Below the pieces are notes generated by a model. It worked only from the letters and a program-made list of their open reading frames with translations, ran no database searches and was not told the origin of the DNA. The translations under genes and the position numbers were made by a program. Shown in pieces: positions 1,662 through 20,225 of a stretch of 64,000 nucleotides of DNA. Origin of the DNA: Fusarium oxysporum f. sp. lycopersici 4287 (taxonomy: Eukaryota > Ascomycota > Sordariomycetes > Hypocreales > Nectriaceae); contig NC_030992.1 in the NCBI RefSeq assembly GCF_000149955.1, positions 399,669-463,668 of the forward strand, given 5' to 3'. The stretch's first letter is position 1; every line of letters starts with the position of its first letter.

Positions 1662-3663
1662 ATGTCGCTATGTCCCGTTAGCCTTGGCGATTTAGAAACA
1701 TACACTCACTTGCCTTCAATCATGCCGCCTGAAGAAACCACGTTGACAATTGACGTCTTGCCTCCGGGCACGCAACGTATCAATGACTTGCAAGCCACTC
1801 ATATCGTGCTGGCTCCTCGGCCAACTTCAGATCCCAATCAGCCTCTGGTATGAAAACCCCATCCAACAACTGCCCTACTCTAATAGTTATAGAACTGGAG
1901 TCCGATGCGCAAAACCCTCCACATGGTACTTCTCTCCCTCTATTCAATGATGATGTTTTGCATGTATGTCTCCTATCTACAGTACGTCTTGCCATGGCTA
2001 ATTTATCTCGCCCAAGTCCATGCATGAGCGTCCCATTCTGGCAGAACTTCAACGAAGAACTCGGCATGAGCTATGATACACTGAACAATGGATATGCAGC
2101 AAATATGGCAGGCCTTGCAACCGGCTGTATCATCTTTATCCCTATCGCCCTGCGCATCGGCCGTCGACCGGTTTATCTCTTTACATCGTTGATCATGTTT
2201 GCTGCTGGGGCCTGGCAAGCTGAGACATATACTGTTGGGGATATGATTGGTATGAATGCTATCGCAGGTATTGCTGGAGCTGTCAATGAGGCCTTGTTCC
2301 AGGTTACGGTAAGTTTTCACCTAGCTGGTGTAACGAGGTATCGCATACTTACTGATGTGACAGGTAACGGAACTTTTCTTCGTGCATCAACGTGGCACAA
2401 TGAATGGCATCTACTTTATGATGGTCCTAGTAGGGGTGAGCAGTCCTAAGATCCCTTCGGTTCAATCACTTGCTAACAACGGCAGAACTACCTTGGACCT
2501 GTCTACGGTGGCCAAGTAGCCGTGACAATGGGTTGGCGATGGGCATGCTGGTCCGCCACCGTCTTCACGGGTATAATCACCGTCCTCATGTTCTTCTTCC
2601 TAGAGGAGACCAAATACATCCCCGCACCACTCAACGGCCACGACCCTCGAGTCACCGCATCCTCCCCTACCGATAACGAGCTGTTCAAGGTTAACAGCAC
2701 TGCGAAGGCACCCTTGCCAAACGATTCACCAGCCAGCGTCGACTCTATGGAGCAGCAGAGCGATACAGTCGAGATAGATCACAGCATTCCCATGAATTCT
2801 TACTGGAAGCGCCATGCACTGTGGACATTGGATAAGCATGAGTCCACTCAGAAACGCACGATCTGGAGAGACATTTACGAGCCCTTCCAGCTTCTTGCCA
2901 TATTCCCAGCCGTCATGTTCGCCGCGTTACAGTATGGCTGGAGTATTGCTATGCTTGCGATTTTGGCCGTAACGCAAAGCTCACTATACTCTATTCCCCC
3001 TTACAACTTTACAACTGCAGGTGTTGGAAACATGAATATCCCTCCATTCATTGGTGCAATCCTGGGAGCTCTGTTTGGAGGGCCACTTGTCGACTGGTCG
3101 ATTGTGCAGATCGCAAAACGCCGCGGAGGTATCTATGAACCCGAGACTAGGCTGTGGCTATTCTTGGTTCCAGGGCTATGCATGACTATCGGATGTCTGA
3201 TGTATGGGCTCACTATTGCAAAGGTAAGTTCTATCTGACATTTAGCAACTTGAACATGCTGACGGTGCGTAGGGAATGCCTTGGATCATCAATGCCGTAG
3301 GCTCAGGTTTCATTGGTTTTGCCATTGGAGGCGGTGGAGACATGTCCCTCACATATCTTCAAGATTCTCACGAGCATGTAAGTTGTCCGAGACCCAACCG
3401 TACTGCCCTCGACTAAACCTCTCGCAAAGATTATAGGTCCTGCTCTGACAGGCGTTGTTTTTATCCGTAATGTCATTGCAACCGCTCTTGTCTTTGCCGT
3501 CACACCATGGATGAATGGCATGGGTGTGTACAACATGTATGTGGTCTTGGGCTGCATTTCTACCGCCATTGCTTTGACCTGTGTACCAATGGTAATCTGG
3601 GGTCGCACATTCAGGGTTCGGTTGGCGGGCAAGTATGAATACTTCACCAATAAGCAGTATTAA
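1662..3663 (+). CDS. Major facilitator superfamily transporter
   Basis: Seven exons give an unbroken protein: 1662-1847, 1893-1963, 2017-2308, 2364-2435, 2486-3223, 3273-3377 and 3430-3663. From the ATG at 1722 the product is 545 residues; the ATG at 1662 would add 20. The 1722 start is slightly favoured because its N-terminus (MPPEETTL) looks like relatives. Landmarks are the pre-membrane DPNQPLNWSP segment, an IALRIGRRP loop between helices 2 and 3, and the VHQRGTMNGIY segment typical of fungal DHA1-like carriers. An acidic central loop of about 100 residues separates two sets of six predicted helices. It ends 34 bp from the convergent dehydrogenase gene. In this setting it is most simply the uptake or efflux carrier of the aromatic substrate, which is inference. 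Confidence 0.88.
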
Positions 3664-3697
3664 GTTGAAGCATATAAATATTTATATACAAGCTCTA

Positions 3698-4945
3698 TCA
3701 TCTTTTGACGCACATGTTGAGTATCTCCACGACTTGGCTGGTCTCTGTGATTGGGAATGCATTTGTTTGGATCCAGATATCGTCGAGACTGTTCCGCGCA
3801 AGGACCTCAAGCTTATCTTCTCCAACTCCTACTTCTTCAAGTGATCGAGGCATGCCCAGAGTGGAGATAAATACGTCCAAGATATCGGCCAAACTTACGG
3901 CGCTCTTATCAAGACCCTTCACTTGTAGCAGTTGCCCAACTTCATCCTGTTCCAACAACAAGTCCCGTACCACTTCCTGTCTCTCAACGTTTGCCTTCTT
4001 ATCGAAGTTGAATCTGCATACAGCAGGCAGGAGTATACAGCTCGTTTCACCGTGACCAACTCCAAGGGGTCCAAGCTGGTGTCCGATGGCATGACTCGCA
4101 CCGAGTGGCACACCACTTGACACGGCACACATAGACGAGACAACACCCTGATGGCATAGATGTCGCGCTTGTAAAGACTTCGGATCTGCCTTGCTTGCCA
4201 ACAGACCACTGACAAGTTTGACGAGTCCGTTTTTCGACCATTCATCAGCTCTATCGTTTGAGACAAGCGAGCATAGCGTTTCGACACAATGATCTACAGC
4301 TCGAATCCCTGTACTAAGCCAAACCCACTCGGGGGTAGTAAGGCACAGCTCTGGATCTTGAATAACGAGTTCTGGGTCGACACCCTCGCAGTGAAATGTT
4401 CTCTTCGCGTGGCCTTGGGACTCTGTTCCTCCTGCAATGGCTTGAAACTCTCCTCCGGACAGTGATGTTGGGATGTGGATAAGAGGAATGGTCGGCTTGG
4501 ATATGTTGTTTCGCAACATAGGATTGCTCTTTGGTGTTCCCCACAGAGTATCCATCTCCTCCTCGCTTGTAGCCGAGTTGGCCAAGGCGAGCCGGACCAA
4601 CTTGGCGGCATCCGTTAGACTGCCAGCGCCTAGCGTCACCAGGCAGTCGATGTTGAGGCTTGACGCATCATTGACGACTTCAAGAACTTGCGCAATTGGA
4701 GTATGTGGATTGATGCCGATTCTAACTCCGACAATACTACTGCCCAGTGCCGAACGAAGTCGTTCGAGTGCATCTGTAGATTGAGCCAAAGATTTTGAAC
4801 AAATTACGTACACCTTAGAGGTTGAGAGGGTATCGCGACAGTGACGTAAGCAGGCTTCAGGAAATCGAAGTCCGTATGAGACTTTTGGTGTCTCCCGACC
4901 TTCGTAAGCTGGATAGCAAGTTTCATCTCCGAATGTGAAAGCCAT
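3698..4945 (-). CDS. Iron-containing alcohol dehydrogenase family, maleylacetate-reductase-like
   Basis: This is a single-exon gene of 415 residues from the ATG at 4945; upstream in-frame codons offer only GTG. Visible family marks are the NAD(P)-binding GAGSLTDAAK near residue 105, IPTSLSGGEF near 158, and metal-site segments RAVDHCVETL near 215 and SHAIGHQLG followed by GVGHGE in the C-terminal half. Members of this branch reduce maleylacetate to 3-oxoadipate with NAD(P)H, the step that joins hydroxyquinol or gentisate-type routes to the beta-ketoadipate trunk. It is transcribed head-to-head with the thiolase across a 362 bp promoter. The family is certain; the maleylacetate role is supported by neighbours and motif style only. 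Other fungal Fe-ADHs act on lactaldehyde or hydroxyacids. Confidence 0.82.
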   Translation of the reverse strand: MAFTFGDETCYPAYEGRETPKVSYGLRFPEACLRHCRDTLSTSKVYVICSKSLAQSTDALERLRSALGSSIVGVRIGINPHTPIAQVLEVVNDASSLNIDCLVTLGAGSLTDAAKLVRLALANSATSEEEMDTLWGTPKSNPMLRNNISKPTIPLIHIPTSLSGGEFQAIAGGTESQGHAKRTFHCEGVDPELVIQDPELCLTTPEWVWLSTGIRAVDHCVETLCSLVSNDRADEWSKNGLVKLVSGLLASKADPKSLQARHLCHQGVVSSMCAVSSGVPLGASHAIGHQLGPLGVGHGETSCILLPAVCRFNFDKKANVERQEVVRDLLLEQDEVGQLLQVKGLDKSAVSLADILDVFISTLGMPRSLEEVGVGEDKLEVLARNSLDDIWIQTNAFPITETSQVVEILNMCVKR

Positions 4946-5307
4946 GATTATTCCAAGAATTGTAATTGTCACAGCAGAACGCTGGTGAATCTACAAAAAC
5001 TCATTCGATGACAACAATACAGGGTAGGATAGAGAACGGCACGTGGCGCGACTCACCGAAGTGAGCTTAGTGCGTGACACACACGTTCCACATACGCGTT
5101 CCACATGGAACGCGTGAGCTCGTTCTCCACATGACAGGGACCGTGTCAACGGAATTACGGATATGGGTCCAACTTGACATTATGTGGGACACTGAGACAG
5201 GGATATTGCCCGAGCGAGGCATGACAGCGATGGCCCAAGCCCGTATGAGAGTATCGTCAGTAGGATGCTTCGTTGCAGATAGTGATACACACGAACAAAA
5301 CGAAGAA
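4946..5307. promoter_or_regulatory. Divergent promoter, dehydrogenase / thiolase, with four CCACAT-type sites
   Basis: This shared promoter contains TTCCACAT at 5086-5093 and 5099-5106, CTCCACAT at 5125-5132, and on the top strand ATGTGGGA at 5182-5189. Read on one strand these are variants of ATGTGGRR. The same core recurs in the promoters at 8405-8785 and 12252-12659 and upstream of the regulator at 18084-18123. The cluster of sites lies upstream of the thiolase ATG at 5308, which also argues against the longer in-frame start codons upstream. The binding protein is unknown; the C2H2 regulator at 14539-17612 is the obvious candidate. Confidence 0.55.
5095..5114. repeat. Perfect inverted repeat, 8 bp arms, 4 bp spacer
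   Basis: The arms CGCGTTCC and GGAACGCG surround ACAT. The left half is also present as a direct copy: CGTTCCACAT occurs at 5084-5093 and again at 5097-5106, 13 bp apart. The location in the middle of the divergent promoter suggests a dimeric operator, or two overlapping half-sites. Confidence 0.6.
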
Positions 5308-6690
5308 ATGGCAACTCTGATACGGCGTTTGAAGGCATTAACAACCAAATCACCCAATGATGTAGTGATTTTATCAGCTGTTCGCAGTCCGATTACACGA
5401 GCTTTCAAAGGCGGTTTCAAAGATGCATGGCCAGAGGATATTCTTGCCCCAGTAAGCTTGAGTTCTTAGATTTGACCGTAGAAAGTGAAGCTGATAAGCC
5501 CTCTAGGTGATGGCCGAAGCAGCACGACGAGCCAAGATTCAATCCGGAGACGTTCAAGATGTTCTGATAGGGAATGTTCTCGCGGAGCTAGGCTTTGCAA
5601 AAACTGGTAGAATGGCGCTGTTACACGCAGGATTTCCTACATCAACGACATTTCATACCGTCAATCGTCAGTGTTCGAGCAGTCTTCAGGCTCTAAGTCA
5701 TATGGCACATGCTATCCAAGCGGGTCAGATTGATGTCGCTCTAGCTGGAGGAGTCGAGAGCATGTCGAAGAACTACCAATCTCGAGGGATACCCCAAGAC
5801 GTGGGTCCAACTCTGCGTAACACCAAGGTCAAAGCAGCTTCTGACTGTCTCATGCCTATGGGTATTACGTCGGAGAATGTTGCGAGGAGATATGGAGTTG
5901 ATCGTAAGATGCAGGATGAGTACGCGCTGCTGAGTCATACTCGTGCGAATGAAGCTCTTGCTGCCGGTAGGTTTGAGGCGGAGATTGTGCAGATTGAGTA
6001 TACAGTATACGACAACGAAACTGGGAACACTTCACAAGTTCGAGTTGCTGCAGATGACACTATCCGGCCAAACGTGACTTTGGAGAAGTTGGCCAAACTT
6101 AAGCCAGCATTTCTAGAGGACGGTGGTAGCACTGCTGGTAACTCGTAAGTATAGCGCAGCCCACTTGTTTCGAGGTCTTACTGATCATCGCATGCAGGTC
6201 CCAAATATCCGACGGTGCATCAGCAGCCATCCTAGCCCGTCGCTCATGGGCAACCGAACGCGGCTTGAAACCTGTAGCACGATTTCTCGGAACCCAAGTC
6301 GCTGGCTGCGAACCCGATGAAATGGGCATGGGGCCAATCTATGCCATTCCGCGACTCTATCAACATGTCGGTATAGAGCAGAAAGATGTTGATGTTATCG
6401 AACTCAATGAAGCATTTGCAAGTCAGACTCTGGCGTGCATTAATAAACTTGGGTTGGATGTTGATAAAGTTAATCCGAATGGTGGCGCTATCGCTATTGG
6501 ACATCCTACTGGAGCGACTGGGACGAGACAGCTTGCGACGCTGATTGCTGAGCTTGGGAGACGGGGAAAGGAGATTGGTATTATTAGCATGTGTGCCAGG
6601 TAAGACCGTCCATATTCCCTCGATTTAGTTGATACTGACAGGTCTCTTAGTACTGGAATCGGTGTTGCATCCGCTATAATTGTGGAATAA
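5308..6690 (+). CDS. 3-ketoacyl-CoA thiolase / acetyl-CoA acyltransferase
   Basis: Four exons (5308-5451, 5507-6144, 6198-6599, 6651-6690) encode 407 residues. In-frame ATGs at 5221 and upstream are possible but run into the regulatory sites. The active-site cysteine is Cys104 in NRQCSSS. Further marks are GGVESMS, NSSQISDGA, the NEAFA segment, GHPTGATG near residue 360, and a C-terminal cysteine in MCASTGIG. The enzyme cleaves a 3-oxoacyl-CoA with CoA. In a beta-ketoadipate-type route this would release acetyl-CoA and succinyl-CoA from 3-oxoadipyl-CoA. There is no clear C-terminal SKL, and the N-terminus is not an obvious PTS2, so its compartment is open. It is one half of the first divergent pair. 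Confidence 0.9.
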
Positions 6691-6837
6691 TTCAGTAAGA
6701 CAATTCATTTGCTATACAATTACTTTGTTCGCACCTTGTAACGACTAGATTCATGTAGGTTACCGCAAGCATGACAGGCAGAGCGTTAAGTAGAAACGAT
6801 GAATAAATATTACTATACTAGTATGTACAAGCTCTAA

Positions 6838-8404
6838 TTATCCACCGACAGCCTTATTCTCTCTCAACCTCTTGATCTCAGTTGGATCTAGCCCCAGCAC
6901 ATCTCTCAGTACCTCATCAGTATGCTCTCCCAGTAGTGGAGGCGGTGTACGGATCGAAGGTTGGGTTCTGGAGTACTTGACCGGACTGTTCAGCACTTTC
7001 AACTGGCCACATGCGGGATGCTTGATCTCTTTGATCATGTCCCTCGCGACAACTGGATCGCCGCCATTAGCATTTTCCGCTATCACATGAGCGTCACTTA
7101 CCATGTGAATGTTCCAGTGTGTCCTTGATATCGTTTATCTTTGCATACGCGAGACCGGTACCCTCAAAGATATCAAGCCACTCTTTCGAGAGCTTGGAAC
7201 TCGTAATATCTTCGATCATTCGTTCGAGCACATCTCTATTCGCTACTCGTGCTGAGTTTGTTGAGAAGCGCTCATCGTCCGCCCATTCTTCTTGACCAAG
7301 ACATTTGCACAAAACGCCGAACAGTCGGTCGTTGGCACCACCGATCAAGATGTCGCCGTCTTTAGTGCGGAATGCGCGGTATGGTACGACAGATGCTGGG
7401 AGTTACTGTCAGTTCAAGTCCCAATAATATTGTGTGGAGCGACTCACGATGTGATGTGCCATATCGTCCCCCATCTCTCTTCCCCGTCACCAACACAGAT
7501 TGCGCCATGTTCGCCAGAGTCGCAACTTGACAATCGCTTAAGCACACATCCAAAGCCTGCCCTTGACCAGAGTGGCTTCTCTCAATCACTGCAGCTAGAA
7601 TGCTATTGACTGCATATAGTCCAGTCGTCAAGTCAGTCACTGCAACGCCGACTTTCACTGGTGGTCCATCTCGTGGGCCTGTGATGTGCATCAGACCCAT
7701 TTCAGCTTCGACCATGACGTCGAAACCTGCACGATTACTGTAAGGACCTGTCTGACCATATCCGGTTATACTCGCGTAGATAAGCCGAGGGTTGGTCTTG
7801 GCAAGTGTATTGTAGTCGAGCCCGTATTTCTTCAGAGTTCCGGGCAGGTAGTTCTCGACGATGATATCGGCCTTAGCGGCGAGAGTTTGGATCAGTTTTG
7901 CCCCTTCTTTTTCCTTGAATGAGACTGCTACGGATCTCTTGTTTCGGTTCACCTTTGAGAGGCGTGATAAGCATGGAGTTCTCGCCAAAGTCCAGACAGC
8001 TCAACACTTACCGATAAATAATATGCACTTTCGCCCTCGCCGCCTCGTCCATCTTTATAAGGTGCAAAGGGAGGTCCCCATGCTCTCGTATCATCGCCTC
8101 GTATCGGATGTTCGATCTTAATGACTTCGGCTCTGTCGAAAAGTCAGAAATGGGATGGATTCGAGAAGCGAGTTGCTACGAACCCTAGGTCGCCGAGAAT
8201 CTGCGCGCAATATGGCTTTCTGGTGTTAGCGCTAGCTCAGACGCTTCTTGCACATGAAATACTTACACCAGCGAGAACTCGAGATATGTCCAAGACTCTG
8301 ATTCCCGTTAGAGGCAATCTTGGGGCAGCCGCTGTCGCATTGCCTCTTCTGCTCAAAGCCGAGCGCCAAAGCGGGGCAACAAGTTTTCTTCGCATGGTTA
8401 ACAT
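6838..8404 (-). CDS. Class III (CaiB/BaiF) CoA-transferase
   Basis: Six exons on the minus strand (8404-8267, 8215-8184, 8132-8012, 7952-7448, 7395-7102, 7052-6838) join in phase to 434 residues. The N-terminus is Arg-rich and lacks acidic residues (MRRKL...RSALSRR), which suggests a mitochondrial presequence. Family marks are LDISRVLAG then [16 protein letters not shown], the segment [24 protein letters not shown], and the catalytic-Asp region [13 protein letters not shown]. Members transfer CoA between acyl-CoA and a carboxylic acid. Here it probably activates an intermediate of the aromatic route using succinyl-CoA or another donor. The gene is convergent with the thiolase (147 bp apart) and divergent from the 3-oxoacid CoA-transferase. 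Having a second, unrelated CoA-transferase next door is unusual. Confidence 0.88.
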
Positions 8405-8785
8405 ATTGGTGAAGTCATAACACCCACTTTAATATTCACGAGGCGTCGAATTGGTGAAATACTGAAGCTAAATTGACGCGTATAAAAGTAGCTGTATAAT
8501 CATTCATGGATGTATAAACATTTCGCCCCGGCACGTCTGGTGTTACAGTCCCACATACGGTAGCAGTAACATTTCGCATGTGGGGTTTACGCAGTGACGC
8601 TACTGTACCCTTGTCCATGATGAGAACATTCATTTACAACAAGGCAATTGACTTATGAGAGAATTGGCATGACAAAGTTTGTATATGGGTTTATTCTGCT
8701 GTAAGCTCAATCCTGCAGCACACAACTTGAACTTAACATCCCGACACGCTTCATACGACCGTTGGACTTGCTTTAACTGAGAACC
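8405..8785. promoter_or_regulatory. Divergent promoter of the two CoA-transferases with paired ATGTGGG sites
   Basis: TCCCACAT at 8549-8556 (bottom-strand ATGTGGGA) and ATGTGGGG at 8578-8585 face each other in inverted orientation, 21 bp apart, between the starts at 8404 and 8786. The same opposed pair occurs, in swapped order, at 12428-12452. No open frame of interest lies in this stretch. Confidence 0.55.
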
Positions 8786-10621
8786 ATGATGAGCTCAGCT
8801 TTTCGTGCACAGGCTCCAAATCGCCTATGGACTTTTGCGCAGCGCAGCTTCTCGACCTCCACCGTGTTACGAAGGATCAACAAAATCTGTGCCTCAGAAA
8901 ACGATGCCATTCAGAAGGTGAAAAGTGGATCGACCGTTCTGGTCGGAGGCTTTGGCTTTTCTGGTGTTCCTGAATCGCTTATTGAAGCTGTTGCCGCGCG
9001 CAAGGATCTCAAAGATCTGACCGTTGTCTCAAACAATGCTGGGATGCCTGGTGTTGGGCTCGGTACGTGCACTAATATCGCTGCTGACCACCATGTTAAT
9101 ATCGGCAGGCCGATTGCTGGAAACCCGACAGATCAGCAAAATGATAGCATCTTATATCGGGGAGAATAAAGTGTTCGAGAAGATGTATCTGAGTGGAGAT
9201 CTTAGCCTCGAGTTGATACCGCAGGGGACGATGGCTGAGAGATGCGCTTCTGGGGCAGCTGGCATACCGGCATTCTATACCCCAGCAGCATATGGCACTG
9301 TTGGTAAGTCTGCCACCTCACACAGAGCGACGAGAGGCTAACATATTTGCCTGTTCAGTTCAGACAGGCGAATTGCCTGTTCGATACAACAGAGACGGAT
9401 CCGTAGCGCTCATGTCACGGCCTCGAGAAACTCGCGAGTTTCACGGCAAGAAGTACATACTCGAAGAAGCCATATTCGCCGATGTTGCTTTAGTCAAGGT
9501 TCACAAGGCTGATAGACTTGGTAACTGCACATTTCGGAAAGCACAGAACAACTTCAATGAAGCGATGGCGAAGAATGCAAAGTTGACCATCGTCGAGGCT
9601 GACGAGATTGTTGACGTTGGCCAGCTTGATCCTGAGAGTGTTCATATTCAGGGCATTTATGTCGATGTTATTATTCAGAGTACGAGGCCGAAGAAGATTG
9701 AGAAGTTGACATTTGCCCAAGATGCCAAGGGTGAAGGCAAAGGCAAGTAAAACCTGATCTATTCTCTAGACTCAACCCACTTGCTGACGATTATAGTTAC
9801 AACTGCAAACCAGAGACGAGAGCGTATCATCAAGCGAGCTTCTAAAGAACTGAAAGACGGCATGTACGTCAATCTGGGGATTGGCATGCCACTCGCGACA
9901 CCGGGCATGCTTCCTGAAGACCTAGAAGTCATTCTTCAATCCGAGAATGGTATCCTGGGAATGGGCAGATATCCGAACCCTGGGGAAGAAGATCCAGATC
10001 TCATCAATCCCGGTAAAGAAACGGTGACATTGAACCTTGGTGCCTCGACTTTTGGAAGCCATGAGAGCTTCGGTATGATCAGAGCTGGGAAGATTGACTT
10101 GACTATGCTTGGTGCGCTACAAGTCAGTCAATATGGAGGTAAGCCCTCAGATACTATGATGTTTGGTAATTGATACTGACATGTGAAGACTTGGCCAACT
10201 TCATGCTGCCTGGGAAGGTGAAGGGAATTGGAGGCGCCATGGACCTGGTTGCCAGCCCAGAGAAGACCAGGGTCATCATCACCATGGTACGCCATCTCTT
10301 GTCTTGGATCAGATTTGAGCGGCTGACTAACATCCCTAGGAACATGTTGACCGCAATGGAAACCCTAAGATTCTGGAAGGTAAGTAGGATGATGTGGTGC
10401 TATCAAGCCAGAGTTGCTGACGCCTACTGATAGAATGCACATTCCCGCTCACTGGTCCTCGATGTGTATCTAGGATCATCACTGATATAGCTGTATTTGA
10501 CTGTACACCTGAGGGTTTGGTGCTCAGGGAGCTGGTGGACGAGGTTGAGATGGATGAGCTGAGGAGCAAAACCGGTGCGGCGTTCAGGATCGCTGATGAC
10601 TTGATACCATACCAGACTTAG
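8786..10621 (+). CDS. 3-oxoacid CoA-transferase (SCOT type, fused A and B subunits)
   Basis: Seven exons (8786-9062, 9109-9303, 9359-9742, 9797-10138, 10189-10286, 10340-10379, 10434-10621) give 507 residues, the normal size for fused SCOT. The N-terminal 30 residues are rich in Ser, Arg and Ala without acids ([11 protein letters not shown]), as expected for mitochondrial import. The A-domain has [11 protein letters not shown] and [13 protein letters not shown]. The B-domain has [11 protein letters not shown] and the catalytic glutamate in [10 protein letters not shown] near residue 333, then [10 protein letters not shown] and KGIGGAMDL. It transfers CoA from succinyl-CoA to a 3-oxoacid, either acetoacetate or 3-oxoadipate. 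The pathway context favours 3-oxoadipate. The third intron appears to use a GC donor. It is divergent from the class III CoA-transferase. Confidence 0.92.
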
Positions 10622-10720
10622 CTTTGAAGGGAGCAATGAGCATGTCATTTGGAAATCATCGCCTTTTCATGATTAAGATCAAATCCATGATGTTTGTATT
10701 GATAGGAATCTGCTAGCACT

Positions 10721-12251
10721 TTATGATGTATTCTCGGCCAACGTATCATCAACCATACGCTGCGCCGATCCCAGATAATTGATAGGATCACAGAGCCTCT
10801 CCAAATCACTCAAGGGCAGGAACCTGGTTACTCGCTCATCCTTCTTCAGCGTATCGAGCAGCGTACTTCCATCCTTACTCTCAATAGTCTCCTTACAAGC
10901 CTCATACACAATATCATGCGCATCCTGTCTTCCAACATACTTCGCCAACGCCATCATCAGCGCCTCACCAACAATAAGTCCTCGCGTAGAAGCCAGATTA
11001 GCTGCCATGCGCTCTTTGTCCACAACAAGACCTGAAAGCGCAAACTCGGCTTGGTGAAGAGCACCGACTGCTATGACGAAGCTCTCGGGTATGGCTACCC
11101 ATTCTAGATGCCACGGTCCTGATGCGCGTTCAAAGTCGGATACCATGCCGTCAAGAACGAGACTAGCGTTGGAGCGCAGGATTTTGGAGGCAGCGAGGAT
11201 GACTTCGCTGGAGATGGGATTGCGCTTTTGAGGCATTGTGGATGAAGCGCCGCGATGGGGAACGAATGGTTCAGCAACTTCTCCAAGCTCGTTGGAGGAC
11301 ATGATGATGAGGTCCAAGGCAATCTTGCCGAGGGAGCCACCGATGAGGGCTAGAAAATTGACCACTTCAGCGATACCATCGCGGGCAACATGCCAGGTAA
11401 TCGTGGGGTTTTCCAGGCCGAGTTCAGCAGCGAGTTGCTTTCGCACATCAACACCTTCCGGTCCGTCTCCAAGGGATGCCAAAGTCCCGGCCGCACCTCC
11501 ATACTGAACGACAAGAGCACGACTCTTTAGCTGCTGAAGCCGCTCTCTATGGCGGTACAAGCTTGATAGCCACACAGCACATTTATAACCAAAGGTAACG
11601 GGGAGGGCATGCTGGAGATGTGTCCTCCCAGCCATCGGCGTATCGCGATACGTAACTGCCAGATCTTGAAGCGCGTTTATCACGCCAGTCAGCTTGGTCT
11701 CAATAATATCAAGACCAGACTTGATCTGTAACACGCTGGCTGTGTCCATGATATCCTGCGTTGTAGCTCCCCAGTGTAGGTACTTTCCAGCAGAGCCACA
11801 CATGCCATTCAGCTGACGTACAAGAGGCAGGATGGGATAGCCGACTACATCAGTCTCGCTGCGCAACCGGTCCATGTCGAGGCTTGTGGCATTGGCTTTG
11901 GAGGTGATGTCGGCGGCAGCGTCGGCAGGAATGACATTGCATTGGGCTTGGGCTCTGGCTAGAGCAGCTTCAACGTCGACGCATCTGTTGATGTATGCTT
12001 GGTCACTAAATACCTATCGTTGTCATTAAGTCATTTGTTGATGAATGAGAAGATTAGCTCGTTTGACTTACATTGCGAATCTCGTCGGTACCGAATAAGT
12101 TCCGAAATATCACAGAGTCAATTGCACTGACTGATCCAATTGCACGGCGCTGGACAAGTGTTGGCAGACGTATACAGGCATTCCAGCGGTGTGGGTGAGA
12201 TTGAGAGGTAAGTTGAGTGAGTACCCTGCAAGATTGGATTGTGCGCAGCAT
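10721..12251 (-). CDS. 3-carboxy-cis,cis-muconate cycloisomerase-like lyase (fumarase/aspartase superfamily)
   Basis: Two exons (12251-12072 and 12013-10721) encode 490 residues. The superfamily signature SSTMPQKRNP is present, as are GATTQDIMDTA and AGRTHLQHALPVTFG, all characteristic of the bacterial-type cycloisomerase branch rather than fumarases. The first 30 residues (MLRTIQSCRVL...) are basic and could be a mitochondrial presequence, followed by DSVIFRNLFGTDEIRN. Classical fungal 3-carboxymuconate cycloisomerases are a different (propeller) fold, so this bacterial-like type points to a non-canonical route. It would lactonise or isomerise a ring-cleavage product. It is divergent from the dioxygenase across 408 bp. 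Adenylosuccinate lyase is the main alternative but fits the motifs less well. Confidence 0.85.
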
Positions 12252-12659
12252 GATTGGCAACAGAAAAGACCCCAATGATCATACTTTAGGAACAGTGATT
12301 AGGCAACTACCGTAATTTGATATCAATTGACAGTCCCACACGTTGTAAATTAATTAAACATACGAGTTATTCACAAGGTTGAGGGGTAAGAATGATACCG
12401 CGCGCGTAAACATACATACGTCTCATTATGTGGGAGCTCCATATCCCCACATGCGACGTCACATCACATTTCCCACTTACTGGCCCATTTGTGCATCTGC
12501 CGTTCGGTAATAAACATGGGACTGGCAGAACCTCTCTACTAATACGCCCGGAGAATAAAAGGAAAATAAAGCAGTAGATTAGATCTAACACTTCTTGGTC
12601 TTGTATAATCACTACATTCATATCACATTCCTAACAAGAATTACCCATCGAAGTTCAGT
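12252..12659. promoter_or_regulatory. Divergent promoter, cycloisomerase / dioxygenase, with inverted ATGTGGG pair
   Basis: ATGTGGGA at 12428-12435 and CCCCACAT at 12445-12452 form an inverted pair separated by 9 bp, midway between the two starts. A related TCCCACAC lies at 12334-12341. GTGGGG also matches the published CreA consensus (SYGGRG), so carbon repression is an alternative reading of part of the motif. Confidence 0.55.
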
Positions 12660-14375
12660 ATGGTTGCCGCTATCAAGAGACGTGAGCCCGCCACAGATCC
12701 ACAGAAAGTCTTCCACTACACAGATCTCCAGTGTACCAAACCAACCCGCGAGAATGACCCCTACGAGTATCAAGCAGGCTGGGGAAACCGCCATCAATCA
12801 GAAGTCATCCCCGGTACTCTCCCCGCCGGCCAAAACAACCCTCAAGACAGAGGCTTTGGTCTGTACACTGAGGGTATCACCTACTCTGCTTTCGCAGCTC
12901 CTCGCGGCCTCAACATGAGCACTTACATGTACCGCGCCCGACCATCGGCCGCTCATCAAGGATACTCGAGTATTGATACAAAGTCTCATATTGAGAACTG
13001 CTTCTTATCGCTGAACCCAAAGGTTGAGCCTTTGTATCAGCAGGCTGAGTGGTCGCCGTTTCCACTGCCGAAGGATGATGAGACAATTGACTTTACGGAC
13101 GGCTTGCATACCCTTGCTGGAAGCGGTGATCCTAACCTTCGTCAGGGTATCGCTGTGTATGTCTATATGATCAACTCATCCATGATCAACAAGGCGTACT
13201 GTAACACAGACGGCGACTTTCTCATCACTCCTCAACTCGGCATCATAGACATCCAAACCGAAATGGGTCGTCTGTTCGTCCAGCCTGGGGAAATATGCGT
13301 TATCCAACGCGGTGTAAGATTCCGCATCAACCTAGCAGAGGGTGTCCCTGTTGCTCGTGGCCATATCGCTGAAGTCTGGGGATCTATGTGGGAGCTTCCT
13401 GACCTCGGGCCCATCGGAGGACATGGTCTGGCTAACCCGCGAGATTTTCTTTATCCTGTTGCACATATCGATGAGGACCTACATGTGCCTTTCAAGATTG
13501 TTGTCAAGAATAGTGGAAAGCATGTTGTCATCAGTCAGGATCATAGCCCTTTCGATGTTGTTGCCTGGCACGGGAACGCCGTTCCCTACAAGGTGAGCTA
13601 CCAACACACCGATACCAGCAAGACAAGTACTAACTACATGATCCACAGTACGATTTAACCAAGTTCGCGTCTCAGAACAGTACCAGCATTGACCACACTG
13701 ATCCCAGCATCAACACTGTCTTGACAGCAAAGTCATTCGACCCCCATGTTCCGCTCGCGGACTATCTATGGTTCGGTCCTCGATGGGATGTAGCCAGCAA
13801 TTCATTGCGTGCACCTTACTATCACCGAAACAGCGCAACGGAAATGTTGGCTTGTATCTATGGCGCAGGTCTCGGGCGATCTGACGACTTTCTGCCTGGT
13901 GGCTGTAGTTACGAGGGCGGGCATACTCCCCATGGTGGGTTTGGTGAGGAGTATATCACAGAAGCTATCTTGCAGCATAATGAACCGCGCAGAATCTTGG
14001 AAAGTGAGTGGAATCCTTGCTGCGCGAAACTGTAATACAGTTGCTAACTTTGGCCCAGATCAAATGACCATCATGGTTGAGTCTTCACGCACATTTCTGT
14101 TCACAGAGTATGCTCGAGAGATCTGCGGTGTTCTTCACAAACAGGCCACCGACTATCGAGTTTGGGATAATCTTCCCGATCGCTTCTCAGCACATCCTTT
14201 GACCAAGCAGCTTCTTGAGCGTGTTGCGAAGGACAAGGCGAACCAGAAGAAGGCGGTGGACTACTATCACTCGATTCAGTTGCTGGATGCCAAGGGCCAG
14301 CCTACGCAGGTCCTGCCTAATGAGACTAATGGGCATGCAAAGATTAGTGCAGTCGATGCAGCAGTTTGGAACTAG
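12660..14375 (+). CDS. Homogentisate 1,2-dioxygenase family ring-cleavage enzyme
   Basis: Three exons (12660-13592, 13649-14003, 14059-14375) encode 534 residues. The N-terminal half has WGNRHQSEVIPGTLP and FAAPRG as in homogentisate dioxygenases. The metal site is recognisable: APYYHRNSATEM supplies His and, six residues on, Glu (near 371 and 377), and GGHTPHGGFGEE supplies the third His near 405. DHTDPSINTVLTAKS carries the conserved region of the active-site His. These enzymes are Fe(II) extradiol-type dioxygenases that open homogentisate to maleylacetoacetate. The protein is about 90 residues longer than usual, with a Lys-rich tail, and lacks the usual GPD after TPHG. It is therefore probably a paralogue with another 1,4-diol substrate. 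Confidence 0.88.
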
Positions 14376-14538
14376 GACAGGGTTGTGGATTATGCTTGGA
14401 GCAAAGAATATGTTGTATTTGTATTTAACAACCTTGCTCGCATGTAGGTTCTCGCGTATGAATAGTACCTTATCTAGTGATAATACTCTATGTCTTTTCG
14501 AGGCTACTTGTACATATAAAAGCTCTGAGCGCTTCAGG

Positions 14539-17500
14539 TCAATCACCGCCCAATCGGTCGTCGACTTCGATCAAAGAGTCGCTCATTATCCGGAGTATGT
14601 GGCACAGTTCTTTCGCATTCCACTTCCCAACCTCTTCTAGTAAGCTCGCAAACTCGAGCAAGATCATCTTGGCAGCATTATATCCCGCTTCACAAACTGT
14701 TCCGGAGAAGCTAATACTTCCTCCATTCTGTATAAACTGACTGGCACTAGTATCCCCGGCAATATCTACTGCTGACATTGGATCACATAGATTAGTCCAG
14801 TCAATATCGTTGAGTAACTCAAATGACTCTGTGTCAGAGTCACTATGCACCTCGTTCGGCTTCATCATAAACACAGAGAGTCCTAGTACAAGCGCAGCTG
14901 TGAATAAGGACATGTCGGAATGGAGCATGACGCCATCGTTCGCACGCCTGCGGCTCATGGCGATGTAGATTCCGGCTGCGTGGAGACAAGCTCGTCGTGC
15001 ATGCTGGGTCTGACTCCAATTGGCGATCTCTTGCAATGCAGCGTATGCGCTCTCAGCTCCGTTGCGACCAGAGGCCATTTCGAAGATCTCAAGGTTGGCC
15101 AGTAGGTTGAGGTTCAGGAAGTGCCACTGTGCGATACAGTTGGGGTTCCTATACCGAAGAAACCTTGAGTAGTTTGTGTAGATATCGCCCAGCACACGCA
15201 ACATGTTGTTACCCGTCTCACTCGAAGCATCAACACTTGCGGTTGGCTGCTCTCCATTGCCATCTTCCGGTAGCCTAGCTCCTCTTGTTTGATGCTGATG
15301 TTGAAGAATCCGCGCCCAGATGACAGACAACAAGCCAGTCATTCCAATCGGCGAAGTCTCTTGAAGCGGCTTTAAAGTGATGGATGGGTCATGCATTCGT
15401 ATTACGACAGGGTCTGTAGTTGCACTTGTGCCAGCATTACGACAACTCCTCCATGACTTTGCTGATGAGGACCGATACAGATCAATCGATGTCGACATCT
15501 CCAATTGCACCACGGAAGTACAGATGAGTGGCTCCGTGTTGAGTCTAGAAGCCCACCAAGCGTCAATCATGATCAGAGTCGATATTAATCTTGAAACAGG
15601 TGTCACTGTCAGCGTTTATAAGACTCGAGTATTAACGTTGGCATACCTCTTGAAGCTCTCTGTTCGAGCCCATGCCTTCCACGCCCAGTCATCGCTCTGC
15701 GCTGGGTCATGAATAAGTCTAGCCGAGTTCGCTTGATTGAGTAGATTGTCTATACTGAACGAAGCGGGACGTGGCATCAGTAATCCTGACATTTGAACCC
15801 GCTGTAAGAGCAATTGTCGTCAGCTTTGTGATTCAGGAACAGGATGACTCGGAAATTACATTAATGGTCTGATGGTATAGCATTCTGGACAAGAACGCAT
15901 CACGAGCACCCTGCGACTAAAGTGAGCAATAACCTCCCGAGCCATAGCGCCATAGGATGCCATACATGTGGTGAGCTTATTGACCAAGCCATTAGAAGCA
16001 AAGCCGCTGATGCAAGGCGCTCGATAAGCTGTGCAGACCCCTCTGGACCAAACGATGCTGTCGCTAATTGAGAACAGCACTGCTCTGTCGCTGCCTGCAA
16101 ACAATTAGTCATTTTCTTCCGGCTTTTGGAAATCGCAGCGACATTACTGGCAGGTAGTGTTGCGTGAAGGGCTTCACAAATGAAGAGTCAAGAATAACCA
16201 GGCCAAGGAGGCATAACGAGAATACGACTGAATTAGATGCCGACTTGGCTGAGAACGTCGGTTGGTGTATAAACGGGACGAGAGAATGAGGCTGTCGAAA
16301 GGCGATGGTGAGACCGAGATTTAGTAGCCGCGCCGGTAGAAAGTCAACGCTGGAACCAGGTGAACCGAACTCGCGGATGAGATCCTGTCTCTTTTCTTCG
16401 TCCATTCCCCATCTCGATTCATTCTCAGTACCTATGGTAGAGCTTGGCGACGACTGCGAAATAGAGACGTCTGTGAAGATACCGTCACCTCGATAGTTCA
16501 CCACGTCCGCCCAGACTTTCGAAGCAATTTGACTCGCGGAATGGGTCCGGTTTCTAGGCCATAGTGCGGCAACCCTCGCGAAGCGCTCGAGCGGGATACT
16601 GCTTACAGGATCGATGCTGTTACTCGAGGCTTGCGAGCCACGTACCCCTGGTGATGTTTCGCTGAGACTAAAGTCAAGAAAGTCCAGATGACTGAGGTTA
16701 GGTTGTAAGAGCTCTAGAGCACCAGCGTAATGTAACAGATCTGTGTTGCTCATCGATGTGAGGGATGCTTCATTATTACCCCAGGGAGCTGATGAGGCAG
16801 CAGTATGAGAATGAAAGACATTTGCCCTGGTACTCAGTGACACTCCAGGGCTAAGAAACTCGGCATTGGCGGTGAACAAGGTTGGGGTAGCGGTCTCCAA
16901 TGTTGTCTCCACCATATGATGCGAGAAGCTCAGGGGTGATAGTTCATTATCATGATGGCCTGCAGCTGGAGACGGATTCGTAGGTCGCTGCTCAGGATCG
17001 AAAGGGTCTTGTAGGTTTAATTTGGCTGATTCGGTCGGTTGTTCGTGGAGAGCTTGGAGCATGGAGACCGTCGCCAACGCATCGAGGTCAGACGTCGAGA
17101 ATTGCGCCATCGAATTATCGACGGTGATAGAGGCATCCTCCTGCGGTTGTGGCTGCCCATGATCGCGTATGCGGTTGTTTTCATGCTCCTGATGATCGTT
17201 GTCGGCTTCTGAGCCTTGTTCTGGCTCCGGTGGCGGTATAGAACACACATTTATGGAATCGGCCAGTACACTTTGTCGGCGCTGTCGGCTTTTCTCGTTC
17301 GTTGAGACATCGGATCTTCGGCGCTCTCTTTGTGAGGCATCACTGTTTGGATGGAAGTATCTGACATGGCGGAGGAGGACATCGCTATGGCCATCAATAC
17401 CAGCATTGACAAAAGTTGGAGATGGCTTCTTACCTCCGTGCATAGCCGCGACCGCATGTATCACATCGGTATGGCTTCTCCCCTGTATCTAAGCATGGGT

Positions 17501-17612
17501 CAATTTGGCGATTGAGATGATTCCATGTGGGGATGATCTTACGAGAGCGCTCGTGCCGGAGAAGATGCTCTGTCTTGTGGAACGTTCGGTGACAGTATGA
17601 GCAGCCTTTCAT
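14539..17612 (-). CDS. C2H2 zinc-finger transcription factor with fungal-specific middle domain
   Basis: Seven exons (17612-17543, 17488-17434, 17384-16148, 16094-15966, 15916-15860, 15801-15647, 15589-14539) join in phase to 917 residues. Two classical fingers sit at the N-terminus: CSYCHRTFHKTEHLLRHERSH, then the linker TGEKPYRC and CGRGYARSDVLLRH. A long Ser/Thr/Gln-rich region follows and then a helical fungal_trans-type domain (SGLLMPRPASF, SRFLRYRN, GLSVFMMKP). It lies at the end of the cluster, convergent with the dioxygenase gene (163 bp apart), and is the natural candidate for the pathway regulator. ATGTGGG sites about 470 bp upstream of the ATG would allow self-control. A short upstream coding exon cannot be excluded, because the open frame continues 5' of the ATG. 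Confidence 0.87.
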
Positions 17613-18083: not shown

Positions 18084-18123
18084 ATGTGGGGCTTTCATGA
18101 GCATGAAAGTAATGTATGTGGGA
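18084..18123. promoter_or_regulatory. Two ATGTGGG sites flanking a perfect palindrome upstream of the regulator
   Basis: ATGTGGGG at 18084-18091 and ATGTGGGA at 18116-18123 flank an inverted repeat at 18092-18109 whose arms CTTTCATG and CATGAAAG are separated by AG (the first arm starts at 18093 if the C is taken as arm start). The region 17613-18257 otherwise holds only short open frames without recognisable features. A further ATGTGGGG is at 17525-17532 inside the regulator's first intron. The arrangement suggests autoregulation. Confidence 0.45.
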
Positions 18124-18257: not shown

Positions 18258-18870
18258 CTAGTTATACTGAGATAAAAACGCTTCTGCACTCTCAAGCTCC
18301 CTCTTGATAGCTTCAACATGTGCTACACTTCGCGGCTTAATGTTAACCTTGTATGGCAGTGGACACACCAAATTAGCCGACGTATATGCATCTGGATCCA
18401 GGGGCTGAACCTTTTGGTTACAGGGTCAATCGGTTCGGAGAACTCAAACGCCCACAATAACTTAGCAGTGATTCGCCACATACTGCGCTCGGCCAGATGA
18501 ATTCCAGGGCAGATACGCCGTCCCGCACCATATCCATAGTGATGTGGAAATGCAAGTTAGTTCATAGCTCCATATGGTATTTTTGAGGGATGGACTTATC
18601 TCGTTTCTCATAATCTGGACCCACAGCGTATTCATTTGCTAGCTTTGTATGAGACAGGTAGCGGTCAGGGTCGAAGGTGTCATGACTTCCATAATAATCC
18701 TTGTCGTGATGCATCGCCCAAACGCCGACGAAGATGGTACTTCCTTTGGGGATCAACATTCCGTCGTAGTAGTCATCTGTCAAAAGCTTAGTTACGGCGC
18801 GAACGTTTCGAACCACAGTGGTATCAAGACTTACCCTTGGTGACTGTGTGAGGCAGTCCTAGATCGGAAC
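18258..18870 (-). pseudogene. Cytochrome P450 C-terminal relic (minus strand)
   Basis: Only the last third of a P450 remains. It starts with DLGLPHTVTK, an intron that still has GTAAGT, then DDYYDGMLIPKGSTIF, DTFDPDRYL, and the haem-binding GYGAGRRICPG with its cysteine. Two kinds of damage are visible. A former intron between YEKRD and HYGYG has lost a normal donor and acceptor. After DPVTK the reading frame moves by one base in a run of four A residues; only the other frame continues with the family-like end LVCPLPYKV to the TAG at 18258. About 300 N-terminal residues are missing. It lies head-to-head with a second relic of the same subfamily. Confidence 0.82.
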
Positions 18871-19337
18871 TATACCTGGTACGACGGAATGCTCATCCCA
18901 AAAGACGCCACCGTTATCATTCCCTCATACGCGATCCATCGATCAGAGCAAATGAAGTACACAAACCCGGATACGTTCGACCCAAGTCGCTACATCAACC
19001 ACCCACGCTTGGCAAGTGACTATGCAGGCAGTCCCGACTTCAACAACCGAGACCACTACGGCTATGGTGCAGGTCGTCGTATCTGCCCCGGTATGCACCT
19101 CGCAGAGCGAACGCAGTGGCGAGCTATTGCCAGGATCCTCTGGGCATTTGATATAGAGCTTGCCGTCAATCCAGCGACGGGGCAGAAAATTGTACCTGAT
19201 CCGGAGGCTTTCAAGGAAGGAATTGCGCATGGGCCTAAGCCGTTCAAGGTTGTGTTTAAACTCGCAGTCAAGCACATATTGATACTATCTTCCGAGAAGC
19301 GGAGCAGAGCCTTGATGAGGTGGCCAAATGGGACTGA
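18871..19337 (+). pseudogene. Cytochrome P450 C-terminal relic (plus strand)
   Basis: This is the mirror partner of the preceding relic, beginning abruptly at YDGMLIPKDATV. It keeps DTFDPSRYINHPRLASDY, the haem motif GYGAGRRICPG and HLAERTQWRAIARILWAFDI. At about 19260 one base is missing relative to the expected KPRSQAH, so the family-like tail SQAHIDTIF...EVAKWD ends at a TGA at 19335-19337 in another frame. There is no N-terminal or I-helix region. The two relics differ in sequence, so they are paralogues or old copies, not a recent inverted duplication. Confidence 0.82.
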
Positions 19338-20225
19338 AGGAGTCGGAATGTCTACGTAGGTTAGTGACTCACAGTCACTTTCACATTATGGTGTAGCTAT
19401 CTATGCGAAATTATCTTATATGACTGTATTACTATTAAATTCTTTCACGGTGTTGTGGTTTCAACGTACATGGCGACGTGGGTTTGTCTGTTGTATTTAA
19501 AACATGTTATAAGGAGTTCAGAAGCATCACGAGGAATTCGGTAAAGTTACAGAATGTGGGAGGACTAGCATATTACACAGAAGGCCTTATTAGGTAGAAG
19601 TCTTACCAATACCAAAATAACGAACAGAAAGTTGAGGGTATGTGTACTTTCACCATAATAATGCAGTTACAAGACTCATGTGAATACGATTCAAACAATC
19701 CGATCTTCCTTGGCAACCCTCGTTTCCTTCTAATGTCATCATGTTGCGTATGGAATTCATTATCCTGTGTTTACTAAAATCTGTTTAAACCACGGAAAAA
19801 AAGGTGCAGCTTCGTAATCACTACCCACGTTTCTTCAAAAAAGAAAAAACACAAATACCCTCGGCATGCCAACCCTTGGCATCAAGCGAAGTTGGTCCGA
19901 AATGGACATTGGCGAACTTTGGCCGTCTCAAGCTAATCTTTGGCATATTCTTCCGACCAAAGGTCCGTGTGCTTTTGAGGACTAGGCTAATATCATGTGT
20001 GTCCAGTATGCGGCATGAGGAAATTTAAAGTTGTGTATGAAAAGTACTTTGTTGATTATCTCTCCTGTAGAACGAAGTTATTCCATCATTGATCCAGCCT
20101 GGCCAAACACAAGTTCAGAATGGAAGCAGAAACGGTTACTGTAATTATCCACAGACTCCTTCCCTACGCGTTGCAAATCTGACAGATTAGAACAGACTAC
20201 TAGCGATGTACCTGTATTCGATGCG
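19338..20225. other. Intergenic, no gene seen
   Basis: About 890 bp between the P450 relic and the reductase. It is AT-rich with short open frames only. One ATGTGGGA copy sits at 19554-19561, about 670 bp before the reductase start, which could be chance. Confidence 0.55.

What the first reader, a model, noticed from the sequence alone, without database searches (positions are those of the whole stretch)
1662..17612. Candidate undescribed aromatic-acid catabolic cluster with a mixed fungal/bacterial-style route
Seen: an MFS carrier, a maleylacetate-reductase-like Fe-ADH, a thiolase, a class III CoA-transferase, a SCOT-type transferase, a bacterial-type carboxymuconate-cycloisomerase relative, a homogentisate-dioxygenase relative and a C2H2 regulator sit side by side, all intact. 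Known: these families cover ring opening, isomerisation, reduction to 3-oxoadipate, CoA transfer and thiolysis. Inference: together they form one complete route from a 1,4-dihydroxylated aromatic acid to acetyl-CoA and succinyl-CoA. I do not recall a described fungal cluster with this set; classical fungal homogentisate clusters use fumarylacetoacetase and maleylacetoacetate isomerase, both absent here.
Basis: partly seen in the sequence, partly recalled or inferred. Interest (0 to 1): 0.85.

Follow-up and report, generated by a model that had tools for sequence, protein, structure and literature searches.

The report
Conserved fungal ring-cleaving gene cluster
A mould chromosome carries an intact eight-gene cluster, its core also found together in other fungi, that probably opens an aromatic hydroquinone ring by a route not yet described and feeds the pieces into central metabolism.

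Summary
In detail: eight genes, all with intact frames, in a genome probably of the Fusarium oxysporum complex (97-99% protein matches). The core is linked elsewhere. Of 66 listed rows of the ring-opener's clade, 20 have the lyase and 12 the maleylacetate-reductase-like gene on a contig of identical length, 9 both; nine rows have consecutive HGO and lyase tags.

The interpretation needs correcting. The dioxygenase clade keeps the iron ligands but lacks Tyr350 and His365 of homogentisate dioxygenase in 74 of 74 rows. HmgA-type genes, fumarylacetoacetase and maleylacetoacetate isomerase exist elsewhere in the genome. The "cycloisomerase" differs from PcaB: it has His where four PcaB rows have Trp or Leu, and its origin is probably bacterial. 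The "MAR" lacks a metal-binding Asp. A promoter motif is shared by seven genes, not the transporter.

Best reading: an undescribed hydroquinone-type ring-cleavage pathway ending in 3-oxoadipate-like thiolysis. Substrate, reactions and the lyase step are inferred.

The parts
1662..3663 (+). MFS transporter, 565 aa, 7 exons; weakest member (no shared promoter motif)
   Evidence: gene model; PF07690 101 bits; motif absent upstream
3698..4945 (-). Fe-ADH superfamily, maleylacetate-reductase/FUM7-like, probably a C=C reductase, 415 aa, no intron; metal-binding Asp replaced by Arg
   Evidence: no NCBIfam cut-off reached; contig of identical length with the HGO-like gene in 12 of 66 rows
5308..6690 (+). 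3-ketoacyl-CoA-type thiolase, 407 aa, 4 exons
   Evidence: a thiolase C-terminal domain is merged with the lyase model in Thermoascus P0198 (weak similarity)
6838..8395 (-). Class III (CaiB/SUGCT-like) CoA-transferase, 431 aa, 6 exons
   Evidence: merged with the HGO-like model in Didymosphaeria P0042
8786..10621 (+). SCOT-type 3-oxoacid CoA-transferase, 507 aa, 7 exons
10721..12251 (-). Fumarase-superfamily lyase, 490 aa, 2 exons; probably bacterial-derived; differs from PcaB and from Tad1 by motif
12660..14375 (+). HGO-family hydroquinone-type ring-cleaving dioxygenase, 534 aa, 3 exons; separate clade 'D'
14539..17612 (-). Regulator: C2H2 zinc fingers plus fungal-specific transcription factor domain, 917 aa, 7 exons
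   Evidence: zinc-finger models below cut-off
5088..5188 (.). Divergent promoter MAR|thiolase: CCACAT at 5088, 5101, 5127; ATGTGGG at 5182
8550..8584 (.). Divergent promoter CaiB|SCOT: CCCACAT 8550 and ATGTGGG 8578
12428..12452 (.). Divergent promoter lyase|HGO: ATGTGGG 12428 and CCCACAT 12446
18084..18122 (.). Two ATGTGGG sites upstream of the regulator

Best explanation
The cluster encodes a catabolic pathway shared by several classes of filamentous ascomycetes. It opens the ring of a substituted hydroquinone (1,4-diol) that is not homogentisate. Steps: (1) the HGO-clade-D Fe(II) dioxygenase cleaves between the hydroxylated and the substituted carbon, giving a 4-oxo-hex-2-enoate (maleyl-type) acid; (2) the MAR/FUM7-like reductase reduces its conjugated C=C; (3) the fumarase-type lyase removes a second group (OH or OR) beta to the keto group, or performs a related beta-elimination, giving a fumaryl-type enone that the reductase takes again; (4) the SCOT-type and/or class III transferase moves CoA from succinyl-CoA, and the thiolase splits the 3-oxoacyl-CoA into acetyl-CoA plus succinyl-CoA (or an analogue). 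The C2H2 regulator probably controls the genes through CCCACAT/ATGTGGG sites. Shown here: gene content, intact frames, linkage in other fungi, active-site states, promoter motif. Inferred: every reaction, the substrate, the regulator-site link and mitochondrial location.
For: Of 66 listed clade-D HGO rows, 20 have the lyase, 12 the MAR-like gene and 9 both on a contig of identical length; consecutive HGO and lyase tags in nine rows. In F. nematophilum and Scytalidium three tags lie between MAR and lyase, the number of genes found here. One merged model joins HGO with CaiB (P0042), another a thiolase C-terminal domain with the lyase (P0198). Fe ligands and His292 in at least 73 of 74 clade-D rows, Tyr350 and His365 in 0 of 74. 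NCBIfam hmgA 449.3 against cut-off 510.75. MAR-like: metal Asp is Arg in 10 of 10 fungal rows. Lyase has His in the RTxxQ motif where four PcaB rows have Trp (three) or Leu (one). Motif ATGTGGG/CCCACAT 5 against 0.12 expected in three divergent promoters, plus 2 copies upstream of the regulator.
Against: No expression or enzyme data. The MAR-like protein reaches no NCBIfam cut-off and aligns with methanol dehydrogenases (95.7 bits) as well as with MAR1 (89.2). The lyase also occurs where no clade-D HGO row was listed (A. terreus); in A. niger the lyase row stands for 19 member sequences, the clade-D row for 2, so the lyase may serve another pathway too. Its bacterial relatives sit beside transporters, GntR and fumarase-like genes, not ring-cleavage genes, though my ORF calling found the lyase itself in only 59 of 80 loci. 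It passes the pcaB cut-off by 2 bits (358.0 against 355.75). Spacing varies: two tags between MAR and lyase in V. albo-atrum, none in A. nanangensis, five in A. hiratsukae. 43 of 66 rows gave no shared contig. Two CoA-transferases are unexplained. The cluster CaiB shows no lineage of its own: identity to the Didymosphaeria copy 63.5%, to our C1 paralogue 66% or 58.8%.
Confidence: 0.55

Rival explanations
1. Methoxyhydroquinone (vanillate) pathway: clade D would be the orthologue of A. niger MhdA.
For: MhdA is an HGO relative, lies near an MFS gene, and its product is thought to need a MAR-like reductase (PMC8336404 passages).
Against: MhdA homologues are reported in A. fumigatus, A. oryzae, P. 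chrysogenum and F. graminearum; none is named among the clade-D rows listed, though clusters at 90% identity could hide some, Fusarium above all. MhdA with His tag is 55.5 kDa, whereas the A. niger clade-D row is 60.6 kDa; four rows of clades B and C are 53.8-55.7 kDa. The esterase gene that adjoins mhdA is absent here.
Confidence: 0.12
2. Hydroxyquinol route by an HGO-type instead of an intradiol enzyme: ring opening gives maleylacetate directly, then MAR, SCOT and thiolase; lyase and CaiB are accessory.
For: Accounts for four genes with textbook chemistry; the MAR subfamily reduces maleylacetate (PMC5125639 passages).
Against: Leaves the lyase without a job, although it shares a contig with HGO in 20 of 66 rows. 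Fungi are known to use intradiol hydroxyquinol dioxygenases (PMC12388069 passages).
Confidence: 0.13
3. Alternative homogentisate breakdown: maleylacetoacetate is reduced, activated by SCOT and thiolysed twice, bypassing fumarylacetoacetase.
For: HGO family membership; MAR, SCOT and thiolase would suffice on paper.
Against: Tyr350 and His365 absent in 74 of 74 clade-D rows but present in 4 of 4 HmgA rows; score under the hmgA equivalog cut-off; HmgA-type gene beside fumarylacetoacetase-like exons on C4, and a fumarylacetoacetase-isomerase pair on C8.
Confidence: 0.07
4. Two modules side by side: ring opening (HGO, MAR, SCOT, thiolase) and a tricarboxylate or itaconate-like module (Tad1-related lyase plus SUGCT-like transferase).
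For: Tad1 is the second-best solved relative of the lyase; SUGCT is the best of the transferase; three MAR-like rows carry FUM7 names and FUM7 mutants make alkene analogues.
Against: The Tad1 motif ARSNLKQ is not present; the lyase has GRTHLQ. Lyase and HGO have consecutive tags in nine rows.
Confidence: 0.1

Closest known systems
Methoxyhydroquinone pathway of Aspergillus niger (VhyA, MhdA, MAR candidate, OmeA; PMC8336404, passages seen)
   Same: HGO-family ring opener on a hydroquinone, MAR-like reduction proposed, end in 3-oxoadipate, MFS gene nearby
   Different: Probably a different HGO clade by species content and size; no esterase gene here; adds lyase, class III CoA-transferase, SCOT, thiolase and regulator in one cluster
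Canonical homogentisate pathway (HmgA, fumarylacetoacetase, maleylacetoacetate isomerase)
   Same: HGO fold and Fe ligands
   Different: Lacks Tyr350/His365, fumarylacetoacetase and isomerase; such genes lie elsewhere in this genome
Bacterial PcaB (3-carboxy-cis,cis-muconate cycloisomerase)
   Same: Fumarase superfamily, 39.5-45.4% identity to four PcaB rows
   Different: GRTHLQ and GASSTMPQK instead of (G/A)RTWLQ or GRTLTQ and GGSS(T/A)MPHK; relatives of this kind coexist with a higher-scoring PcaB in four of five bacterial genomes. No tree with PcaB was built
Trans-aconitate decarboxylase Tad1
   Same: Second closest solved structure
   Different: Motif ARSNLKQ against GRTHLQ
Fungal 3-oxoadipate pathway ending (KstA transferase, KctA thiolase; PMC10406623, passages seen)
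   Same: SCOT-type transferase and ketoacyl-CoA thiolase
   Different: Cluster carries its own copies; the closest other copies found in this genome are 61% and 53% identical
Fumonisin FUM7 reductase
   Same: MAR-subfamily member acting on an alkene (PMC5125639 passages); three homologue rows bear the FUM7 name
   Different: Not in a fumonisin cluster; direct identity to FUM7 not measured

Membership tests
Homogentisate 1,2-dioxygenase (HmgA) | HgmA_N and HgmA_C domains, Fe ligands His335/Glu341/His371 and His292 | tested here: met
Homogentisate 1,2-dioxygenase (HmgA) | Equivalog cut-off of NCBIfam TIGR01015 | tested here: not met
   449.3 against 510.75
Homogentisate 1,2-dioxygenase (HmgA) | Tyr350 (P. 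putida Tyr346, homogentisate contact) and His365 | tested here: not met
   0 of 74 clade-D rows (74 of the 75 of the tree); residue roles from PMC6337169 and PMC4019311 passages
Methoxyhydroquinone 1,2-dioxygenase (MhdA) | Same clade as NRRL3_10111 | tested here: inconclusive
   Sequence not available; species content and mass argue against
PcaB cycloisomerase | TIGR02426 cut-off | tested here: inconclusive
   358.0 against 355.75; best hits in four of five bacterial genomes 397-431, relatives of this lyase 345-359
PcaB cycloisomerase | Trp or Leu instead of His in the RTxxQ motif | tested here: not met
   His here; Trp in three and Leu in one of four PcaB rows over the cut-off; two sub-cut-off hits aligned too (L146, L147) have His and were not counted as PcaB
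Trans-aconitate decarboxylase Tad1 | ARSNLKQ motif as in 9h3i | tested here: not met
Maleylacetate reductase subfamily | Fe-ADH fold with loss of the metal-binding Asp | tested here: met
   Asp to Arg in 10 of 10 fungal rows; that such loss marks MARs is recalled
Maleylacetate reductase subfamily | Clearly better match to MARs than to other Fe-ADHs | tested here: inconclusive
   methanol dehydrogenase 95.7 bits, MAR1 89.2 bits; no NCBIfam cut-off reached
Maleylacetate reductase subfamily | Reduction of maleylacetate | not testable with these tools
   needs assay
Succinyl-CoA:dicarboxylate CoA-transferase (SUGCT, class III) | CoA_transf_3 domain, SUGCT best solved relative | tested here: met
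   421 bits; 401 bits to 9br6
3-oxoacid CoA-transferase (SCOT/PcaIJ) | TIGR02428 and TIGR02429 cut-offs | tested here: met
   273.8/243.55 and 229.3/128.5
3-oxoadipyl-CoA thiolase PcaF | TIGR02430 cut-off | tested here: not met
   297.1 against 597; fungal KctA itself not tested

The most novel reading that the evidence does not exclude
This is a further central ring-opening pathway of fungi beyond the eight intermediates listed in 2026 (PMC13094099): a clade of HGO-family enzymes opens a doubly oxygen-substituted hydroquinone (such as the syringyl-type 2,6-dimethoxyhydroquinone, or 1,2,3,5-tetrahydroxybenzene by a second route), and a fumarase-type lyase acquired from bacteria eliminates the second hydroxyl or alkoxyl group so that the maleylacetate-reductase-like enzyme can finish the chain to 3-oxoadipate.
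Probability: 0.25. Interest if true: 0.8.

Novelty: new variant of a known kind. Interest (0 to 1): 0.6.

Why it matters
Fungal aromatic catabolism drives lignin and plant-phenolic turnover. Where named, many listed rows call this dioxygenase homogentisate dioxygenase and this lyase 3-carboxymuconate cycloisomerase. The residue and motif evidence says both names are doubtful. A linked cluster with a defined gene set makes an undescribed ring-cleavage route directly testable by expression in E. coli and single-gene deletions.

Tried and rejected
Rejected readings: homogentisate dioxygenase, PcaB step, Tad1 step, cluster as replacement of a missing homogentisate pathway.

Led nowhere: in the bacterial neighbourhoods of the lyase a BLAST of the cluster proteins found no HGO- or MAR-like ORF, and SCOT-like and CaiB-like ORFs in 1 of 80 loci each; the ORF caller recovered the lyase itself in only 59 of 80, so misses are likely. 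Neighbour families were recognised by eye. The genome search for paired motif sites found 2 places for one orientation and 4 for the other, with reversed-pattern controls of 1 and 2; the cluster sites are among them by construction, so this names no new targets. The A. niger protein NRRL3_00837 was considered and is not this lyase (25.48 kDa). Structure models were made of the close homologues P0001 and P0121, not of the window's own proteins (mean pLDDT 78.1 and 80.9); Foldseek confirmed folds, not substrates. CaiB identities did not show a cluster-specific lineage. The papers PMC10832562 and PMC10880611 are not held. Of ten paper searches, nine looked for the cluster or its steps and for HGO residues; supplements could not be read.

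Limits: contig length and tags stand in for gene order; lists are capped at 120 rows and clustered at 90% identity, so counts are lower bounds and absence is weak evidence. The tree used 104 of 120 homologues (rows under 400 aa dropped) plus four genome rows and warns that long branches of clades B and C meet. One search used 74 of the 75 clade-D rows (P0075 left out). The lyase tree used 118 of 120 homologues, some of them unnamed metagenome rows, and 24 of 80 bacterial loci, with long-branch warnings for Tad1, own_C13 and 3c8t.


Full report
What is there. The window lies at G000:C7:399669-463668 of a 61.2 Mb genome in 71 contigs. Best protein matches are Fusarium: lyase 99% to a F. oxysporum row, MAR-like 97% to F. 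oxysporum, HGO-like 97% to Fusarium sp. NRRL 52700, so the F. oxysporum complex is likely; no tool named the organism. Hand-built models give eight genes with intact frames between 1662 and 17612, each with at least one Pfam family above cut-off. Three gene pairs are divergent: MAR|thiolase, CaiB|SCOT and lyase|HGO. SCOT, CaiB and the lyase have N-terminal extensions that look like mitochondrial leaders by eye; no predictor was run.

The core is linked in other fungi. Homologue lists (120 best rows each) carry locus tags and contig lengths. HGO and lyase tags are consecutive in nine rows: Fusarium nematophilum, F. decemcellulare, F. torreyae, F. lateritium, Verticillium albo-atrum, Scytalidium lignicola, Oculimacula yallundae, Boeremia exigua and Penicillium alfredii, four classes by my recollection of their taxonomy. 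In F. nematophilum and Scytalidium the MAR-like tag is four from the lyase, leaving three genes between; here thiolase, CaiB and SCOT fill that gap, so the same content there is likely but was not read. Spacing is not constant: two tags between MAR and lyase in V. albo-atrum, none in A. nanangensis, five in A. hiratsukae. A merged gene model in Didymosphaeria joins HGO and CaiB; one in Thermoascus joins a thiolase C-terminal domain and the lyase (its similarity to our thiolase is weak). CaiB itself shows no cluster-specific lineage: 63.5% identity to the Didymosphaeria copy against 66% or 58.8% across introns to our C1 paralogue.

The dioxygenase. Sequence and the fold of its 97% homologue P0001 put it in the HGO family. 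A quick tree of 108 rows separates HmgA-type rows, clade B (with the C7:4165 kb paralogue), clade C and clade D with this gene, with a warning that long branches of B and C meet. In 74 clade-D rows the Fe ligands and His292 are present in all but one gapped row, while Tyr350 and His365 are present in none; Glu replaces His365 in 67. Passages in PMC6337169 give the P. putida equivalent Tyr346 as the residue whose contact with homogentisate closes a loop over the site, and PMC4019311 names His365 as a putative catalytic outer-shell residue. Clade B keeps the Tyr in 10 of 10 rows and has Glu for His365 in 10 of 10; clade C has neither in 18 of 18. The gene scores below the hmgA equivalog cut-off. 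I infer a hydroquinone other than homogentisate.

The lyase. NCBIfam puts it 2 bits above the pcaB cut-off. In five bacterial genomes holding relatives, the best pcaB hit scores 397-431 bits in four, while the relatives of this lyase score 345-359; in the fifth genome the relative is itself the best hit, over the cut-off. Alignment shows GRTHLQ and GASSTMPQK in this lyase and its relatives, (G/A)RTWLQ (three) or GRTLTQ (one) and GGSS(T/A)MPHK in the four high-scoring PcaB rows, ARSNLKQ in Tad1; two further sub-cut-off bacterial hits carry His and were not counted as PcaB. That the His of this motif is the fumarase/aspartase acid-base His is recalled. In a quick tree the fungal and unnamed metagenome rows form one supported group (99) with bacterial rows on successive outer branches, which fits one old transfer from bacteria; no PcaB rows were in that tree. 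Closest solved structure is 3c8t, a Mesorhizobium fumarate lyase. Bacterial neighbours recognised by eye are GntR, dicarboxylate transporters, TctC-type receptors and fumarase-like genes, consistent with a lyase on hydroxy- or alkoxy-dicarboxylates.

The reductase, transferases and thiolase. The Fe-ADH member aligns with MARs and other Fe-ADHs at similar low scores and reaches no NCBIfam cut-off. In all 10 fungal rows aligned the metal-binding Asp is Arg while the His positions remain, which fits a metal-free C=C reductase. PMC5125639 passages place FUM7 in the MAR subfamily and report that FUM7 mutants make analogues with an alkene. The class III transferase is nearest to SUGCT, the other to SCOT. 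The thiolase is nearest to peroxisomal 3-ketoacyl-CoA thiolases. The genome has further SCOT, thiolase, MAR-like and CaiB-like copies, so the cluster holds additional copies of its own.

Co-regulation. Among 791 six-mers in the three divergent promoters (1,160 bp), CCACAT/ATGTGG ranks first (8 against 0.46 expected, P 3e-8). Among 982 seven-mers, CCCACAT/ATGTGGG has 5 against 0.12 (P 1.6e-7) and ranks second, after ACATACG (4 against 0.04, P 9e-8). The background is window 20-64 kb, coding included. The motif occurs in all three promoters. The region upstream of the regulator, not used in the count although I had seen its sites by eye, holds two copies in 688 bp; the region upstream of the transporter holds none in 641 bp. 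C2H2 control through these sites is an inference.

Not a substitute for the homogentisate pathway. HGO-family genes lie on C4, C8 and C7:4165 kb too. Fumarylacetoacetase hits include C8:3.695 Mb, over the cut-off and beside the only maleylacetoacetate isomerase hit over its cut-off, and C4:316-317 kb beside the C4 HmgA-type gene, where each exon alone is under the cut-off.

Known or new. FAMeDB (abstract, introduction, first of two parts of its results, and passages) lists eight fungal ring-opening intermediates, among them methoxyhydroquinone and 1,2,3,5-tetrahydroxybenzene, and cites a Phanerochaete enzyme for methoxy- and dimethoxyhydroquinone. None of the nine searches named above returned this gene set. 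The closest described system is the A. niger methoxyhydroquinone pathway (passages).

Mechanism. The set explains ring opening, C=C reduction, CoA transfer and thiolysis. The lyase fits best if the ring-opened acid carries a second leaving group, because a fumarase-type elimination would then give the enone the reductase can use; this predicts a doubly substituted hydroquinone. This last step is a proposal, not a result.

Noticed in passing
window 18565-22362: Two P450-like fragments on opposite strands (the + one confirmed by Pfam), then a flavodoxin/FAD/NAD-binding reductase ORF: looks like a broken P450-reductase fusion.
   Followed up: partly
window 22893-27312, 34188-35837, 42749-47466: NACHT-like, ankyrin and TPR-like large ORFs typical of fungal NLR-type proteins, recognised by eye.
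   Followed up: no
L109, G000:C13:61500-71499: A second lyase copy (60-64% identical) beside an MFS gene, an AMP-ligase and a 2OG-oxygenase-like gene, by eye: a possible separate use of the same lyase.
   Followed up: partly
L115, G000:C66:28300-38299: SUGCT-like CoA-transferase near an acyl-CoA dehydrogenase, an AMP-ligase and an HMG-CoA-lyase-like gene on a 163 kb contig, by eye.
   Followed up: no
L108, G000:C7:4165784-4167123: Third HGO-family gene of clade B, which keeps Tyr350 but has Glu for His365; a candidate for the methoxyhydroquinone enzyme of this fungus.
   Followed up: partly
public annotation: Where named, many clade-D dioxygenase rows are called homogentisate dioxygenase and many lyase rows 3-carboxymuconate cycloisomerase; both names are doubtful.
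   Followed up: partly
L007, L013, L049 and other bacterial loci: Relatives of the lyase sit with DctA-type transporters and GntR, in L007 and L013 also an enolase-family gene resembling D-tartrate dehydratase (by eye), so the bacterial lyase may act on a C4 dicarboxylate derivative.
   Followed up: partly
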